Positions 16,342 to 20,097 of a DNA stretch of 20,097 nucleotides are shown here, piece after piece. The first letter of the stretch is position 1. Every line of letters begins with the position of its first letter. Both the position numbers and the translations under genes were made by a program. The stretch comes from a virus. The notes under the pieces are model-generated. The model saw only the letters and a list, made by a program, of their open reading frames with translations. It was not told the origin of the DNA and ran no database searches. The stretch lies in IMG/VR virus record IMGVR_UViG_3300031643_000023, positions 1-20,097 of that record, one strand, 5' to 3'.

Positions 16342-17528
16342 GCATCCCGACGCCTATAGTAAGGATCGCTTTCAGCAGCGCCCCATTTGCTGACACTCCT
16401 TCATGGGAAGATGTGTCGAGCTCGGTGGTATCCGTGGCCATAAAGCGCGGCCGGCAGCATGAGCTGGGCCGCATGGAGGCGGGGACGGCCACCGTCGTGC
16501 TTATGAATACCTCCGGGGATTTCTGGCCTGATAACACCGGAGGTTCGTATTACCCAAACGTTAAGCCGCTGAAGCGAATTAATATCAGGGTAACTTATGA
16601 TGAGGCAACCTACGACCTCTATACCGGCTTTATCGAGGACTGGGCACCCGACTTTATTTTGAAACCTATCATGGGGCCGGTGATGGTGGTGACCTGCACC
16701 ACTCTCATCGAGAATCTATCGCGGCTATTTCTGAACGATCCCACTGGCTATTCGCAGGAATTGAGCGGTACCCGGGTGGGCAATGTCCTCGACGACCTGG
16801 GCTGGCCCGCCGGTAATAGAGACATCGACGCCGGCCAGAGTCTCATGCAGGCAACAGGCGAACTTATTAATATCTGCTCTATGGATCACCTCTTCGATGT
16901 CCAGCTCTCCGAGCTAGGCATCTTCTTCATGGCCGGCGATGGCGACGTCCAGTTCCAGGACAGACATGCGCGGCTCAAATCACCTTATACCACCTCCCAG
17001 GCTATATTCGGTGATGACTCCGGAGAGATGGGATATCACCGGCTTGCCCTCGCCTACGGCAATCAATATATCCTGAACGATATCAGGATCACCCGGGAAG
17101 GCGGTGTGGAGCAGGTAGCCACGGATGCGACGAGCCAGACTAACTACGGCAAGCGCGGTCTCCCCCGGACTGGCCTACTTATGACCGCCGATACCGAGGC
17201 TCTCAGCCAGGCGCAGTATCTCCTGAAGCAATATAAAGACCCCGCCCTCCGCGTGAAGAGCGTTACTACCCGGCCCGGCGGTGATGAGGCGAATCTCTAT
17301 CCGAAAGTGTTCGGCTATGACATCTCGACTCGCATTACCATGAGGCTCAATCAGGCCTCGCTTGACGGCGATTATCATATCGAAGGCGTCAACCTATCCT
17401 GGGCAGCTGTCAATGCCTGGGGGTGGGAGGGCAAATGGGAGCTCTCCAGCGCCGACAGCCAGCAGTATTGGGCAATAGGCGTGGCCGGCTTTGGTGAAAT
17501 CGGGGAGACTACCTATGTCGCTTACTAG
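16338..17528 (+). CDS. Minor tail / tail hub protein
   Basis: A 396-residue protein coupled to the tape measure by an ATGA overlap. Its position right after the tape measure and its beta-rich sequence (VVSVAIKRGRQHELGRMEAGTATV, TYDLYTGFIEDWAPDF, LTRITMRLNQASLDGDYHIEGVNLSW-like C-terminal part) fit the minor tail or hub proteins that follow the tape measure in many siphoviruses, which form the tail tip base and combine distal tail and hub folds. Residues ~75-85 NTSGDFWPDN and the final WGWEGKWELSSAD are recurrent in this group as I remember it. No catalytic motif is evident. Confidence 0.75.
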   Translation: MSIPTPIVRIAFSSAPFADTPSWEDVSSSVVSVAIKRGRQHELGRMEAGTATVVLMNTSGDFWPDNTGGSYYPNVKPLKRINIRVTYDEATYDLYTGFIEDWAPDFILKPIMGPVMVVTCTTLIENLSRLFLNDPTGYSQELSGTRVGNVLDDLGWPAGNRDIDAGQSLMQATGELINICSMDHLFDVQLSELGIFFMAGDGDVQFQDRHARLKSPYTTSQAIFGDDSGEMGYHRLALAYGNQYILNDIRITREGGVEQVATDATSQTNYGKRGLPRTGLLMTADTEALSQAQYLLKQYKDPALRVKSVTTRPGGDEANLYPKVFGYDISTRITMRLNQASLDGDYHIEGVNLSWAAVNAWGWEGKWELSSADSQQYWAIGVAGFGEIGETTYVAY

Positions 17529-17537
17529 AGGAGTTCT

Positions 17538-17969
17538 ATGATTACAGCCAATATCTTTTTTAACAGAATCCGCGGACCATACCAGCCCAAGATTGGGAGC
17601 TGGGAACCGTATCGGCAGCTGGTCTTAATCCCGGAGCTGGCGGCTAAAGGCCTGGCCGAGCAGGGCTATGACGAAGAGAGCCCGCCCCTGCAGGCCTACG
17701 TCAATCACGGCCACTGGCGGGTCAAGTGCGAATGCGGCAGCACTGAGTTTGCCTGGGAGGAGGGCTGGTTCCTCTGCCGGGCATGCCTCAATGGAGCATA
17801 TAAGCACAAATACCGCCGGGCCATCTTCCCGAAGAACCGGGCAAAGATAGAGGAGCTGCTGGCCAAGCGGCCGCTGCCTAACCGGAACTGGTATCCCGGG
17901 GAGGCTTTGACCCAGCTCAAGAAGGAGAATAAAGACCATGAAGAGGAGATGCTAGAATGGCCTGGGTAG
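17538..17969 (+). CDS. Zinc-ribbon protein of tail region
   Basis: A 143-residue protein with GAGGAG before its ATG. Cys64, Cys66, Cys80 and Cys83 (KCECGS and LCRACL) form a CxC-x13-CxxC zinc ribbon. The segment after it, IFPKNRAKIEELLAKRPLPNRNWYPGE followed by LTQLKKENKDH, matches a pattern I recall in small zinc-binding proteins near the tail-tip genes of many phages; their function is not established. It may be a structural zinc module in the tail tip or an assembly factor. Its final codons overlap the next gene by 13 bases. Confidence 0.7.
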   Translation: MITANIFFNRIRGPYQPKIGSWEPYRQLVLIPELAAKGLAEQGYDEESPPLQAYVNHGHWRVKCECGSTEFAWEEGWFLCRACLNGAYKHKYRRAIFPKNRAKIEELLAKRPLPNRNWYPGEALTQLKKENKDHEEEMLEWPG

Positions 17970-18367
17970 CGGGAGCAGATGTCAGCACAGGGCAGCTGAT
18001 AACAGCCGCTCAATGGAATAACTACATGGGGACAAGCGGTAGCCTAACATATTTGAAGGGGCAGACGGATAGGCTGGATAACCTTACCCATTCGGAACCT
18101 TCAAGGGCTTTAGATACCATTTACCATAATACCACTGGGAAGATAAAATTCGTGACTCTTCAAGTTTTCTGTAGTGGCACCGAAAGTGTAAAGATTTTTG
18201 TGGGTTCAGCTACCCCACCTACAACATTCTTAGGTTATATCTCTACTAACGGTGATATTGTTAATCTCATGGCTACTTTCCCAGTTTTACCTGATTACTA
18301 TTACAAAGCCGAGATATTTGCCGGTGCTCCCACTATTCAGGAATGGCACGAGTGGGATTTGCATTAA
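17957..18367 (+). CDS. Short tail-tip or fibre protein
   Basis: A 136-residue protein with GAGGAG at 17943-17948 before the ATG. The N-terminus (VSTGQLITAAQWNNYMGTSGSLTYLKGQ) is the kind of short attachment segment found at the start of phage tail fibres. The rest is a single beta-rich domain (KFVTLQVFCSGTESVKIFVGS, TFLGYISTNGDIVNL, YYYKAEIFAG) ending in HEWDLH, plausible as a receptor-binding jelly-roll. From about 18050 the DNA becomes AT-richer than the upstream tail genes, suggesting the tip domain has been swapped in. This would be the host-range part, though the protein is small for a full fibre. Confidence 0.65.
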   Translation: MAWVAGADVSTGQLITAAQWNNYMGTSGSLTYLKGQTDRLDNLTHSEPSRALDTIYHNTTGKIKFVTLQVFCSGTESVKIFVGSATPPTTFLGYISTNGDIVNLMATFPVLPDYYYKAEIFAGAPTIQEWHEWDLH

Positions 18368-18374
18368 TTAGCGA

Positions 18375-18405
18375 AAAGCCTTAGATTCAGTCTAATATAG
18401 CAAAT
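18375..18405. terminator. Weak bidirectional terminator candidate between convergent genes
   Basis: TTAGA-TTCAG-TCTAA at 18382-18396 is a 5-bp stem between the tail-tip gene and the convergent reverse gene. On the minus strand it overlaps the end of the gene and is followed by GGCTTTTC. The stem is short and AT-rich, so function is doubtful. Confidence 0.25.
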
Positions 18406-18986
18406 TTGTTCTTGGCATACTTCGTATTCTTCGCCCAGACAACATCTGAGGGGAATGTATGCTCTATCCCCTCGGGTATTTTGTCAGTCGTACCTAAAAG
18501 CATAATCCTATCATTATTAGGTTCGATGAGGTAGCTCTCAACAATCCCGTCCTCGCATTCTACCCAAGCTGTGTTCATTCGATGGACATTACCCCACCAG
18601 AGTGTACTATGTATCCAATAGCCATCATCCATAGCATTTTGGGTAAGAGTAATAGAAAAATCTTCGCAGTCAAATTCATGTATAGTATATTCCAACTCAT
18701 CTGTCTTGTCTTCGGCAAGAAAGGCTTGTAGCTCCTCCAGGCTCTTAAAGTTGCGGAGCTTGTCTGAATAAGAGATAGCCAGTTCCTGCTTTAGTTCCTG
18801 TATCTCATCCAAGGCAGAAGCATAATCCTTCTCTAAACCGGCTAACTCAGTTTGCAAAGAAACATTACTCGTGCAGGCTTCGGCAATTCCTGTCTCTTTT
18901 AGTCTGAGTTGGTTAGCCAGTAAACCTACAAGGCAGACCAAAATAACCAGTGAGCCTATAGTTAAAAATCTGGCTAGAGTTTTCAT
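18387..18986 (-). CDS. Membrane-anchored transglutaminase/papain-like protein (moron)
   Basis: The only reverse-strand gene, 199 residues, with AAGGAGG five bases before its ATG and its own promoter. Residues ~8-27 are a membrane anchor or signal segment, with no lipobox at Cys18. Residues ~40-75 are coiled-coil-like (LQTELAGLEKDYASALDEIQ). Residues ~100-160 resemble a transglutaminase/papain-fold protease: Cys107 in FDCEDF, His135 in NVHRMNTAW, and E155/N158/D159 in YLIEPNND, the order Cys-His-acid expected of a catalytic triad. Such C-x-D-F...H...IEP proteins occur in anaerobic bacteria and their phages. The product would sit outside the membrane and could alter wall, envelope proteins or phage entry, all inferred. 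Orientation, own promoter and AT-rich bases mark it as a moron, likely expressed outside the lytic cycle. Confidence 0.75.
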   Translation of the reverse strand: MKTLARFLTIGSLVILVCLVGLLANQLRLKETGIAEACTSNVSLQTELAGLEKDYASALDEIQELKQELAISYSDKLRNFKSLEELQAFLAEDKTDELEYTIHEFDCEDFSITLTQNAMDDGYWIHSTLWWGNVHRMNTAWVECEDGIVESYLIEPNNDRIMLLGTTDKIPEGIEHTFPSDVVWAKNTKYAKNKFAILD

Positions 18987-19013
18987 AACGGCCTCCTTAT
19001 TTATGTAATTGAT

Positions 19014-19042
19014 ATATTAGAGTTTCAAGGATATTCTGTCAA
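19014..19042 (-). promoter_or_regulatory. Sigma70-type promoter for the reverse gene
   Basis: Read on the minus strand, TTGACA (19042-19037) is followed after exactly 17 bases by TAATAT (19019-19014). The -35 is perfect and the -10 matches 4 of 6. Transcription would start near 19007, leaving a leader of about 20 bases with the AAGGAGG ribosome binding site at 18998-18992. Its -35 borders the ribosome binding site of the + strand gene at 19057, so the two may interfere. Confidence 0.7.
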
Positions 19043-19056
19043 GAGGAGAAGGGCAA

Positions 19057-19350
19057 GTGAACTGGTTAGGTGAATTTTATCAGTGGTTTTGGTTCCATAC
19101 CGAATTTTGGCTGACGCCGGTTAACCGGCGTCCCTATACTTTTATAATGAGGGACTGGGTATTTACCCACTCAGTATTGGCTTCTGTTCTAGTCTTCCTG
19201 TTTTACGCAGGCATGATTATCCTTTCTATCTGGCATGGGACAGCCAGCACTATTACTACCTCGGTAGGTAGTTTCCTCTTAGCTCACCTTGTTTGGGGAA
19301 GCGCATGGATTGAACACCAGCAGGAGTATCCCGAATATTTAGGAGACTGA
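19057..19350 (+). CDS. Small membrane protein, two predicted spans
   Basis: A 97-residue protein starting at GTG behind GAGGAGAAGGG. An aromatic-rich N-terminus (EFYQWFWFHTEFWLTP) precedes two hydrophobic spans at about 38-58 (HSVLASVLVFLFYAGMIILSI) and 64-82 (TITTSVGSFLLAHLVWGSAW), ending in an acidic tail. The two-span size fits a holin, and the location after the tail genes is where lysis genes normally lie, but no holin family is recognised. It is the first of four closely packed small membrane-protein genes. Confidence 0.65.
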   Translation: MNWLGEFYQWFWFHTEFWLTPVNRRPYTFIMRDWVFTHSVLASVLVFLFYAGMIILSIWHGTASTITTSVGSFLLAHLVWGSAWIEHQQEYPEYLGD

Positions 19351-19351
19351 A

Positions 19352-19540
19352 ATGAGAGATATATTGGCGTTATTATACTTACTCTTATTTCTCCCAGCTT
19401 GGTTTGTTGCTATGATTTATGTAGCCTGTACCTATCCACTAAGCACATTTGAGATGTTAGGAATAGGTACAATCAATGGTGTCTTTTTAGCTTGCTTTAA
19501 GGATATGTGGCAGTTCTATTTCCGCAAGAAGGAATCATGA
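19352..19540 (+). CDS. Small membrane protein, holin-like
   Basis: A 62-residue protein one base after the previous stop, with GGAGACTGAA before its ATG. Two hydrophobic spans, about 4-26 (ILALLYLLLFLPAWFVAMIYV) and 34-52 (MLGIGTINGVFLACFKDMW), and a basic C-terminal end (FRKKES) give the shape of a small class II holin. No family is recognised. Its TGA overlaps the next ATG (ATGA at 19537-19540). Confidence 0.6.
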   Translation: MRDILALLYLLLFLPAWFVAMIYVACTYPLSTFEMLGIGTINGVFLACFKDMWQFYFRKKES

Positions 19541-19662
19541 CCCTCCTAGCCCAGCTCTTTATCGGCTTCCTAACAGTCTTTATAGCAACAATAATCTCCC
19601 TGGTAGCTTTCTGCCTGGTTCTGCACCTTATTATATCGCTGATTGAATGGGGGAAATTATGA
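19537..19662 (+). CDS. 41-residue single-span membrane peptide
   Basis: A short reading frame (MTLLAQLFIGFLTVFIATII continuing to LIEWGKL) fitted exactly between its neighbours: ATGA overlaps at both ends (19537-19540 and 19659-19662) and AAGGAATC before the start. The sequence is one hydrophobic helix of about 30 residues with a short polar end. The double coupling argues that it is translated. It may be a holin regulator, a small pinholin-like peptide or an accessory membrane subunit. Confidence 0.6.
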   Translation: MTLLAQLFIGFLTVFIATIISLVAFCLVLHLIISLIEWGKL

Positions 19663-19973
19663 TAGTAGAAGTAGCCTCACTAGCCACAAGCGGATTAGTA
19701 GCAATCGGTTTAATTGTGACCTGGGTACACAATGGGAGAACTCAGGCGGAACGTGACATAGATATAGCAGAGAAGCAGACCCAGCGTGACCAGGTTTTAG
19801 CCAGCAATCAAAAAACTATTTTAAGGCGGCTTGATGATGAGGATACCGGCCTCTCTGCTCTGAATAACAAAATCCAGTCCTTTAACTTACATTGTGCTAA
19901 GACGAGCACCGGATTAAACGGGCGGATAACTGCCACCGAGAGGGAGATTAAAGAACTCAAGCATCAACCCTGA
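19659..19973 (+). CDS. Membrane-anchored coiled-coil protein of the lysis-like cluster
   Basis: ATG 19659 is preferred over ATG 19647: GGGGGAA at 19649-19655 is well spaced before it, and it overlaps the previous stop as ATGA. The 104-residue protein has one N-terminal span (residues ~3-22, VEVASLATSGLVAIGLIVTW) followed by a long polar helical region (RTQAERDIDIAEKQTQRDQV to REIKELKHQP) with heptad-like spacing and one Cys. This is the build of XhlA-like holin accessories or of spanin-like and phage-membrane tethers. No endolysin is visible before the window ends. Confidence 0.62.
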   Translation: MIVEVASLATSGLVAIGLIVTWVHNGRTQAERDIDIAEKQTQRDQVLASNQKTILRRLDDEDTGLSALNNKIQSFNLHCAKTSTGLNGRITATEREIKELKHQP

Positions 19974-20038
19974 TACCCCCCATAAGCCCTCAGATGGCAA
20001 ATAACAGGCTTTAACAATTAAATAAGGGTAATTCCATT

Positions 20039-20093
20039 GGGGAGAGTTGGAACACACCGATATTAAGGTCGGGATAGGTCGCCAGCTCTCCCC
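20039..20093 (+). ncRNA. Structured element at the right end of the window
   Basis: GGGGAGAGTTGG (20039-20050) pairs with CCAGCTCTCCCC (20082-20093), a 12-bp stem with one G-T wobble. Inside its 31-base loop CCGA (20057-20060) pairs with TCGG (20069-20072). It lies in the gene-free stretch 19974-20097. No T-run is visible before the window ends, so it is not clearly a terminator. It is too short for a tRNA and matches no riboswitch I know. It recalls the GC stem at 625-668 in general design but not in sequence. Confidence 0.45.
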
Positions 20094-20097
20094 GGTT

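What the first reader, a model, noticed from the sequence alone, without database searches (positions are those of the whole stretch)
18387..19042. Reverse-strand moron encoding a membrane-tethered transglutaminase/papain-like protein
A single gene against the transcription of the whole window, with a TTGACA-17-TAATAT promoter, a good ribosome binding site, a membrane anchor, coiled coil and a Cys-His-acid set (C107, H135, E155/D159). Such independently expressed genes in late regions often serve the lysogen, for example by excluding other phages or altering the cell surface. A surface-exposed cysteine enzyme of this type in a phage is not something I know to be characterised.
Basis: partly seen in the sequence, partly recalled or inferred. 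Interest (0 to 1): 0.6.

Follow-up and report, generated by a model that had tools for sequence, protein, structure and literature searches.

The report
Phage membrane-anchored mushroom-lectin-type cysteine protease
A phage related to prophages of the bacterial class Dehalococcoidia carries one reverse-strand gene with its own promoter, probably taken from its host, for a membrane-anchored cysteine protease whose closest solved relatives are mushroom toxin-lectins; it probably trims proteins on the outside of the host cell, but nobody has tested this.

Summary
ORF 18387-18986 (minus, 199 aa) is the only gene against the grain. It has a consensus promoter, a good ribosome-binding site and coding signal. 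It encodes an N-terminal membrane anchor, a long helix and a papain-like domain.

The domain is not transglutaminase-like. Homologue profiles and AlphaFold2 models both lead to the Ca2+-dependent protease domain of Marasmius oreades agglutinin (MOA) and Polyporus squamosus lectin (PSL1a). C107, H135 and E155 align with MOA Cys215, His257 and Glu274.

Seven Dehalococcoidia genomes carry chromosomal relatives; those checked have the same anchor-spacer-protease plan and ordinary bacterial neighbours. The phage gene groups with them (support 96/88). The phage's tail protein has 42-56% identical relatives in Dehalococcoidia genomes. Nine tail-related phages have no such gene in this slot; four related records have a different MOA-type gene on the late strand.

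Best reading: a host-derived moron whose protease faces outward and cleaves host surface proteins, most likely in the lysogen. Main rival: an envelope-lysis peptidase. Dehalococcoides reportedly lack peptidoglycan, and the most complete related prophage read shows no listed endolysin. Protease activity, topology, timing and target are inferred.

The parts
19037..19042 (-). -35 hexamer TTGACA
   Evidence: consensus scan; one of only two such promoter pairs in 20 kb
19014..19019 (-). -10 hexamer TAATAT, 17-bp spacer
18992..18998 (-). ribosome-binding site AAGGAGG, 5 nt before ATG
   Evidence: sequence read
18387..18986 (-). gene for the 199-aa membrane-anchored MOA-type papain-like protein
   Evidence: ORF, coding score, homologues
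18912..18968 (-). membrane anchor, residues 7-25, K2/R6 on the probable inside
   Evidence: hydropathy 2.41; the same plan in Dehalococcoidia relatives
18783..18911 (-). long helix, residues 26-68, probable coiled coil
   Evidence: AlphaFold2 helix 2-68; chromosomal relatives L034 and L036 match coiled-coil families here
18462..18761 (-). papain-like (MOA/PSL1a-type) catalytic domain, residues 76-175
   Evidence: domain model (residues 70-175) pLDDT 90.2, pTM 0.82; top 10 PDB fold matches all MOA/PSL1a; profile hits 3phz 4.6e-9 and 2iho 1.3e-6
18666..18668 (-). codon of C107, predicted nucleophile, start of helix 107-120
   Evidence: invariant in 27 sequences; aligns with MOA Cys215 (PMC8244254)
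18582..18584 (-). codon of H135, predicted catalytic histidine, start of strand 135-143
   Evidence: invariant; aligns with MOA His257
18522..18524 (-). codon of E155, predicted third residue
   Evidence: E in A3, E or D in the wider set; aligns with MOA Glu274
18390..18461 (-). C-terminal tail, residues 176-199, absent from the close relatives, low confidence
   Evidence: pLDDT below 50 for most of residues 177-199; alignment A4

Best explanation
The gene is a moron: a single, independently promoted cargo gene, most likely acquired from the Dehalococcoidia host (Chloroflexota), in a phage related to prophages of that class. Its product is a type II membrane protein. The N-terminal helix anchors it in the cytoplasmic membrane, the following helix is a probable oligomerising stalk, and the C-terminal papain-like cysteine protease domain of the MOA/PSL1a type (C107-H135-E155) faces outward. 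It is proposed to cleave host surface or S-layer proteins near the membrane, changing the surface of the lysogen, for example by removing or masking a phage receptor. In MOA the catalytic cleft is completed by the partner protomer, so the stalk may serve to bring two domains together. Shown by tool results: gene, promoter, anchor, MOA-type domain, conserved catalytic set, clustering with a chromosomal Dehalococcoidia family, absence from the slot in most related phages. Inferred: host identity, direction of transfer, outward topology, protease activity, dimerisation, expression in the lysogen, substrate and benefit.
For: A profile of 10 homologues hits PSL1a (4.6e-9) and MOA (1.3e-6) by sequence. 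The Dehalococcoidia clade aligns with other Agglutinin_C-like proteins by profile-profile comparison (98.9%, E 9.8e-18). The domain model (pLDDT 90) has all ten top PDB matches MOA/PSL1a at probability 0.98-1.00. The full-length model hits a named Agglutinin-C viral protein (E 7.5e-4). The tree puts the gene in an 11-row group of 7 Chloroflexota and 4 viral rows, support 96/88. Chromosomal relatives have ordinary bacterial neighbours (ligA/pth, comEA/comEC-like, a YggS-like gene). The tail protein has relatives in 9 of 393 genomes of the class, the best 42-56% identical. Nine tail-related loci have no such gene at the slot. Related phages carry a recombinase and repressor (L004) or sit in a chromosome (L091), so temperate life is plausible. 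No terminator was found between the convergent plus-strand gene and this one, so late plus-strand transcription would run antisense to it, favouring expression when late genes are silent (inference).
Against: No expression, topology or activity data. The window protein alone gives no relevant Pfam or PDB sequence hit, and the clade-only profile reaches MOA only at E 0.23; the family link needs intermediates. In four related records a MOA-type gene lies on the same strand as the late genes, which fits a lytic role better. Low GC is shared with the neighbouring genes. MOA's Gln276 is Asn157 here and its Trp208 aligns with Tyr100. Foldseek E-values are modest (best 7.9e-3).
Confidence: 0.5

Rival explanations
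1. Envelope-lysis peptidase. Dehalococcoidia phages cannot use a peptidoglycan endolysin on hosts that lack peptidoglycan, so a secreted or tethered peptidase loosens the protein S-layer at the end of infection.
For: MOA-type peptidases of different sequence recur in late cassettes of tail-related phages: L104 right after the fibre-like gene, the G016/L099/L100 prophage, and G399/L103 if its record wraps around; in L096/G404 one follows a late-type membrane protein just before the terminase genes. Other peptidase-like genes occur in the same region (L098 M50B-like E 8e-4, L007 metallopeptidase-like E 0.018). No lysin family among the listed Pfam or PHROG matches of 50 proteins of the G016 prophage. 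Dehalococcoides and Dehalogenimonas are reported to lack peptidoglycan; an S-layer is described in some (PMC10284905).
Against: The window gene is antisense to the late genes with its own promoter. It belongs to the chromosomal host clade, not to the G016-type sequences. Nine tail-related loci have no such gene at the slot, and four long records have none at all. Only the top 25 of 29 Pfam and of 153 PHROG families were listed, and about 2.4 kb at the left end of that prophage was not read.
Confidence: 0.25
2. Cysteine transferase or deamidase (transglutaminase, protein-glutaminase or amidase chemistry) rather than a protease.
For: Protein-glutaminase 2ksv is a weak fold match (prob 0.54). The class has many similarly built anchor-spacer proteins with a C-H-D transglutaminase-like core (L054, L071, L073, L077).
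Against: Closest solved relatives by sequence and fold are MOA and PSL1a, both reported to be proteases (PMC8244254, PMC5256987 abstract). No transglutaminase in the listed fold matches. The transglutaminase-like set is a separate long branch (100/100).
Confidence: 0.12
3. Passive passenger: a host gene picked up without a selected role in the phage, or on the way to decay.
For: Host-clade sequence, an extra 24-residue tail not seen in relatives, no copy found in any relative of this phage at the slot.
Against: Intact frame, consensus promoter and ribosome-binding site, all catalytic residues kept at no more than about 42% identity to its nearest relative, so divergence has happened under constraint.
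Confidence: 0.08
4. Assembly error that joins host DNA to phage DNA.
For: The window is a single metagenomic contig and no second copy of the junctions was found.
Against: Both sides are phage: the fibre-like protein upstream, and downstream small membrane proteins resembling L007:11013-11246, L091:8288-8503 and L101:10167-10493 (by eye).
Confidence: 0.03

Closest known systems
Marasmius oreades agglutinin (MOA) papain-like domain, PDB 2iho/3ef2/5d61/6tsl
   Same: Domain fold, DCDDF motif around the Cys, His and Glu in the same order; C107/H135/E155 align with Cys215/His257/Glu274
   Different: MOA has a beta-trefoil lectin domain and is a fungal protein; here a membrane anchor and stalk replace the lectin. 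Gln276 is Asn157 and Trp208 is Tyr100. Ca2+/Mn2+ dependence not testable here.
Polyporus squamosus lectin PSL1a, PDB 3phz/5mua
   Same: Best sequence-profile hit (4.6e-9) and best domain fold hit (prob 1.00)
   Different: Same differences as MOA
Pfam PF18021 Agglutinin_C
   Same: Matched by 7 of 10 members of alignment A3 and, above the curated cutoff, by the related prophage protein L091:9329-9730
   Different: The window protein itself does not reach a reportable score
Agglutinin C-terminal domain protein of Pyrobaculum filamentous virus 1 (A0A140F3M5)
   Same: Viral, same fold (prob 1.00, E 7.5e-4)
   Different: An archaeal filamentous virus; anchor and stalk not examined
Chromosomal Dehalococcoidia anchor-spacer-protease proteins (L034-L038, L043, L044)
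   Same: Same architecture, nearest kin in the tree
   Different: Chromosomal, stalks of different length, no 24-residue C-terminal tail; function unknown
Superinfection-exclusion surface proteins of temperate phages (Ltp type, PMC3952083)
   Same: Cell-surface-exposed product of a single phage gene in temperate phages
   Different: Ltp is a lipoprotein; no protease domain is known to me in that type; no sequence relation tested

Membership tests
MOA/PSL1a-type papain-like peptidase (Agglutinin_C, PF18021) | Sequence relation to MOA/PSL1a | tested here: met
   Family profile E 4.6e-9 (3phz) and 1.3e-6 (2iho); clade versus Agglutinin_C-like profile 98.9%. Only through intermediates: the single sequence fails.
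MOA/PSL1a-type papain-like peptidase (Agglutinin_C, PF18021) | Pfam PF18021 gathering score reached by the protein itself | tested here: not met
   No PF18021 row for the window protein at E up to 5; the related prophage protein L091:9329-9730 passes (27.1 against 26.8). The protein is therefore described as MOA-type and not filed in the Pfam family.
MOA/PSL1a-type papain-like peptidase (Agglutinin_C, PF18021) | Catalytic Cys, His and Glu in conserved motifs | tested here: met
   Invariant C and H, E or D at the third place; aligned with Cys215/His257/Glu274 (PMC8244254)
MOA/PSL1a-type papain-like peptidase (Agglutinin_C, PF18021) | Fold of the MOA/PSL1a protease domain | tested here: met
   Ten best PDB matches, prob 0.98-1.00, TM 0.46-0.55 on the query; E-values modest. 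The model's alignment contains Agglutinin_C members, so this is not fully independent of sequence.
MOA/PSL1a-type papain-like peptidase (Agglutinin_C, PF18021) | Ca2+/Mn2+-dependent proteolysis; cleft shared by two protomers | not testable with these tools
   Needs purified protein
MOA chimerolectin | N-terminal beta-trefoil lectin domain | tested here: not met
   Residues 1-75 are an anchor and a helix
Transglutaminase-like superfamily enzyme | Recognisable similarity to transglutaminase families or folds | tested here: not met
   None in Pfam or in the 50 listed fold matches
Phage moron | Single gene with own promoter, absent from close relatives at the site | tested here: met
   Promoter; absent at the slot in L004, L005, L006, L007, L008, L096, L101, L102, L105
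Phage moron | Own terminator | tested here: not met
   No terminator-like site near 18387
Phage moron | Expressed in the lysogen | not testable with these tools
   No transcriptome available
Known anti-phage defence protein (PADLOC) | Match to a defence model over its functional domain | tested here: not met
   Only a weak match (E 0.005) to part of a long protein, mainly over the helical region

The most novel reading that the evidence does not exclude
Phages of Dehalococcoidia that lack peptidoglycan use MOA-type cysteine peptidases, tethered or soluble, as S-layer lysins in place of endolysins, and the window gene is a tethered version recruited from the host's own envelope-remodelling protease family.
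Probability: 0.2. Interest if true: 0.75.

Novelty: new variant of a known kind. Interest (0 to 1): 0.45.

Why it matters
MOA's protease has been described as the representative of a fungal-specific papain-like subfamily (PMC4764322). Here the same domain appears in bacteria of several phyla, archaea, phages and an archaeal virus, and in Dehalococcoidia and their phages it is fused to a membrane anchor and stalk. That gives a prokaryotic setting for the domain and a concrete candidate for how phages of peptidoglycan-less, S-layered bacteria alter or open the cell surface, which is an unstudied step as far as the papers searched show.

Tried and rejected
Single-sequence searches of Pfam, NCBIfam, PHROGs, PDB, phage and plasmid collections found nothing relevant, and the first viral scan failed; a hand-made DCEDF...GY DNA pattern broke through. 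NodA, FANCI and LmuB matches were weak and not over the catalytic set: rejected. Transglutaminase reading rejected on fold and sequence. Anti-phage defence gene: no support. The 13-nt imperfect inverted repeat at 18391-18403 / 19009-19021 was considered as insertion-scar evidence, but one arm lies inside the ORF: left as chance. Foreign origin from GC alone rejected because the neighbours share the low GC. Rfam found no RNA element at 17500-20097. A C107-H135 distance could not be measured because model coordinates were not readable.

Full report
OBSERVATION. The window is a 20,097-bp viral contig. Terminase, portal, major head, tape-measure and other head and tail genes run left to right on the plus strand. 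The reverse ORF 18387-18986 is the only convincing minus-strand gene. It has TTGACA-17-TAATAT, one of two such pairs in the window, AAGGAGG 5 nt before ATG, and coding statistics that favour its own frame only. Residues 7-25 form a hydrophobic anchor. The 3' side is convergent with the fibre-like gene 17957-18367, with 19 bp between them and no terminator detected.

FINDING ITS RELATIVES. The sequence alone matches nothing relevant in Pfam, NCBIfam, PHROGs, PDB, phage or plasmid records. A degenerate DNA pattern for DC[DE]DF[AS]...GY found four viral contigs. One, L010/L014, is 35% identical over nearly the whole protein including anchor and helix. Profiles then brought in further viral loci and 17 genomic loci, led by Dehalococcoidia MAGs. 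In the first ten sequences D106, C107, D109, F110, H135 and E155 are invariant; in 27, D106, C107, D109, F110 and H135, with E or D at 155.

WHAT THE DOMAIN IS. The ten-sequence profile hits PSL1a (4.6e-9) and MOA (1.3e-6) in the PDB, aligning C107, H135 and E155 with Cys215, His257 and Glu274 (residue roles from PMC8244254). Seven of ten members match Pfam Agglutinin_C, the window protein not. The clade-only profile reaches MOA only at E 0.23, but profile-profile comparison joins the clade to the other Agglutinin_C-like proteins with 98.9% probability. AlphaFold2 gives pLDDT 80 for the whole protein, with one helix over residues 2-68, and pLDDT 90.2, pTM 0.82 for the domain. The domain's ten best PDB matches are all MOA or PSL1a; no transglutaminase is listed. 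The viral library's one significant match is an Agglutinin-C protein of Pyrobaculum filamentous virus 1.

WHERE IT COMES FROM. Relatives in Dehalococcoidia with the same anchor-spacer-protease plan sit among ordinary chromosomal genes: ligA and pth in L043, comEA/comEC-like genes in L037, a YggS-like gene in L034 and L035 (gene names read by eye). In a 34-row tree the window gene falls in an 11-row group of 7 Chloroflexota and 4 viral rows, support 96/88. A profile of this clade has matches in 93 of 393 genomes of the class, many of them a separate transglutaminase-like family with a similar anchor and stalk. The phage's tail protein has matches in 9 of those 393 genomes, including one integrated prophage, G016. 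Dehalococcoidia are therefore the probable host and donor, although other classes were not searched as a control.

THE SLOT IN RELATED PHAGES. Nine tail-related loci (L004, L005, L006, L007, L008, L096, L101, L102, L105) have no reverse gene of this kind and no MOA-type gene at this place. Four related records carry a different MOA-type gene on the late strand: L104 directly after the fibre-like gene; the G016/L099/L100 prophage in the last late genes; L103/G399 at the far end of its record, which fits the same order if the record wraps around; and L096/G404, next to a late-type membrane protein just before the terminase genes. Fifty proteins of the G016 prophage gave no lysin among the listed Pfam and PHROG families (lists truncated, left 2.4 kb unread). 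Dehalococcoides and Dehalogenimonas are reported to lack peptidoglycan (PMC10284905).

INTERPRETATION. The minus strand, own promoter, lack of a terminator against late transcription, and kinship with a chromosomal host family favour a lysogen-expressed moron that acts at the cell surface. The recurrence of MOA-type peptidases in late cassettes of related phages keeps a lysis role open. Anchor, fold, catalytic set and kinship are shown; topology, activity, timing, target and benefit are inferred. The window protein itself misses the Pfam score, so it is called MOA-type, not a member of PF18021.

NOVELTY. The domain is known from fungi and is named in at least one virus entry. The anchored phage and Dehalococcoidia form, and its wide prokaryotic spread, go beyond the published view of a fungal-specific subfamily (PMC4764322). 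The paper searches found nothing on these prokaryotic proteins, though the library holds only openly licensed papers.

Noticed in passing
window 19113-19132: Perfect 20-bp palindrome GACGCCGGTTAACCGGCGTC, unique in the window and 0.01 expected by chance, inside ORF 19057-19350 and about 70 bp upstream of the reverse gene's -35; possible operator or terminator.
   Followed up: partly
L098:5247-5738: Membrane protein with HEGGH motif, weakly M50B peptidase-like (E 8e-4, below cutoff), in the slot where the window has the reverse gene.
   Followed up: partly
L091:8556-9101 and L103:9775-10320: 181-aa conserved protein with late Cys/His residues, possibly another papain-like (YiiX/NlpC-like by eye) protein in the same late cassette; no Pfam match.
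   Followed up: partly
L091:9731-10442 (minus): GNAT acetyltransferase plus small upstream protein at the right end of the G016 prophage, resembling a toxin-antitoxin pair.
   Followed up: no
L004:14761-15303 (minus): Lipoprotein gene beside a cI-like repressor in a related phage; a candidate lysogeny-expressed surface gene.
   Followed up: no
L054, L071, L073, L077, L043:1-675: A large Dehalococcoidia family with membrane anchor, coiled-coil or glycine/tyrosine-rich spacer, and a transglutaminase-like VCSHFA...HAI...D core, parallel in design to the MOA-type family.
   Followed up: partly
L037:2518-6106: A chromosomal anchored MOA-type gene directly upstream of comEA/comEC-like genes, a possible link to DNA uptake.
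   Followed up: no
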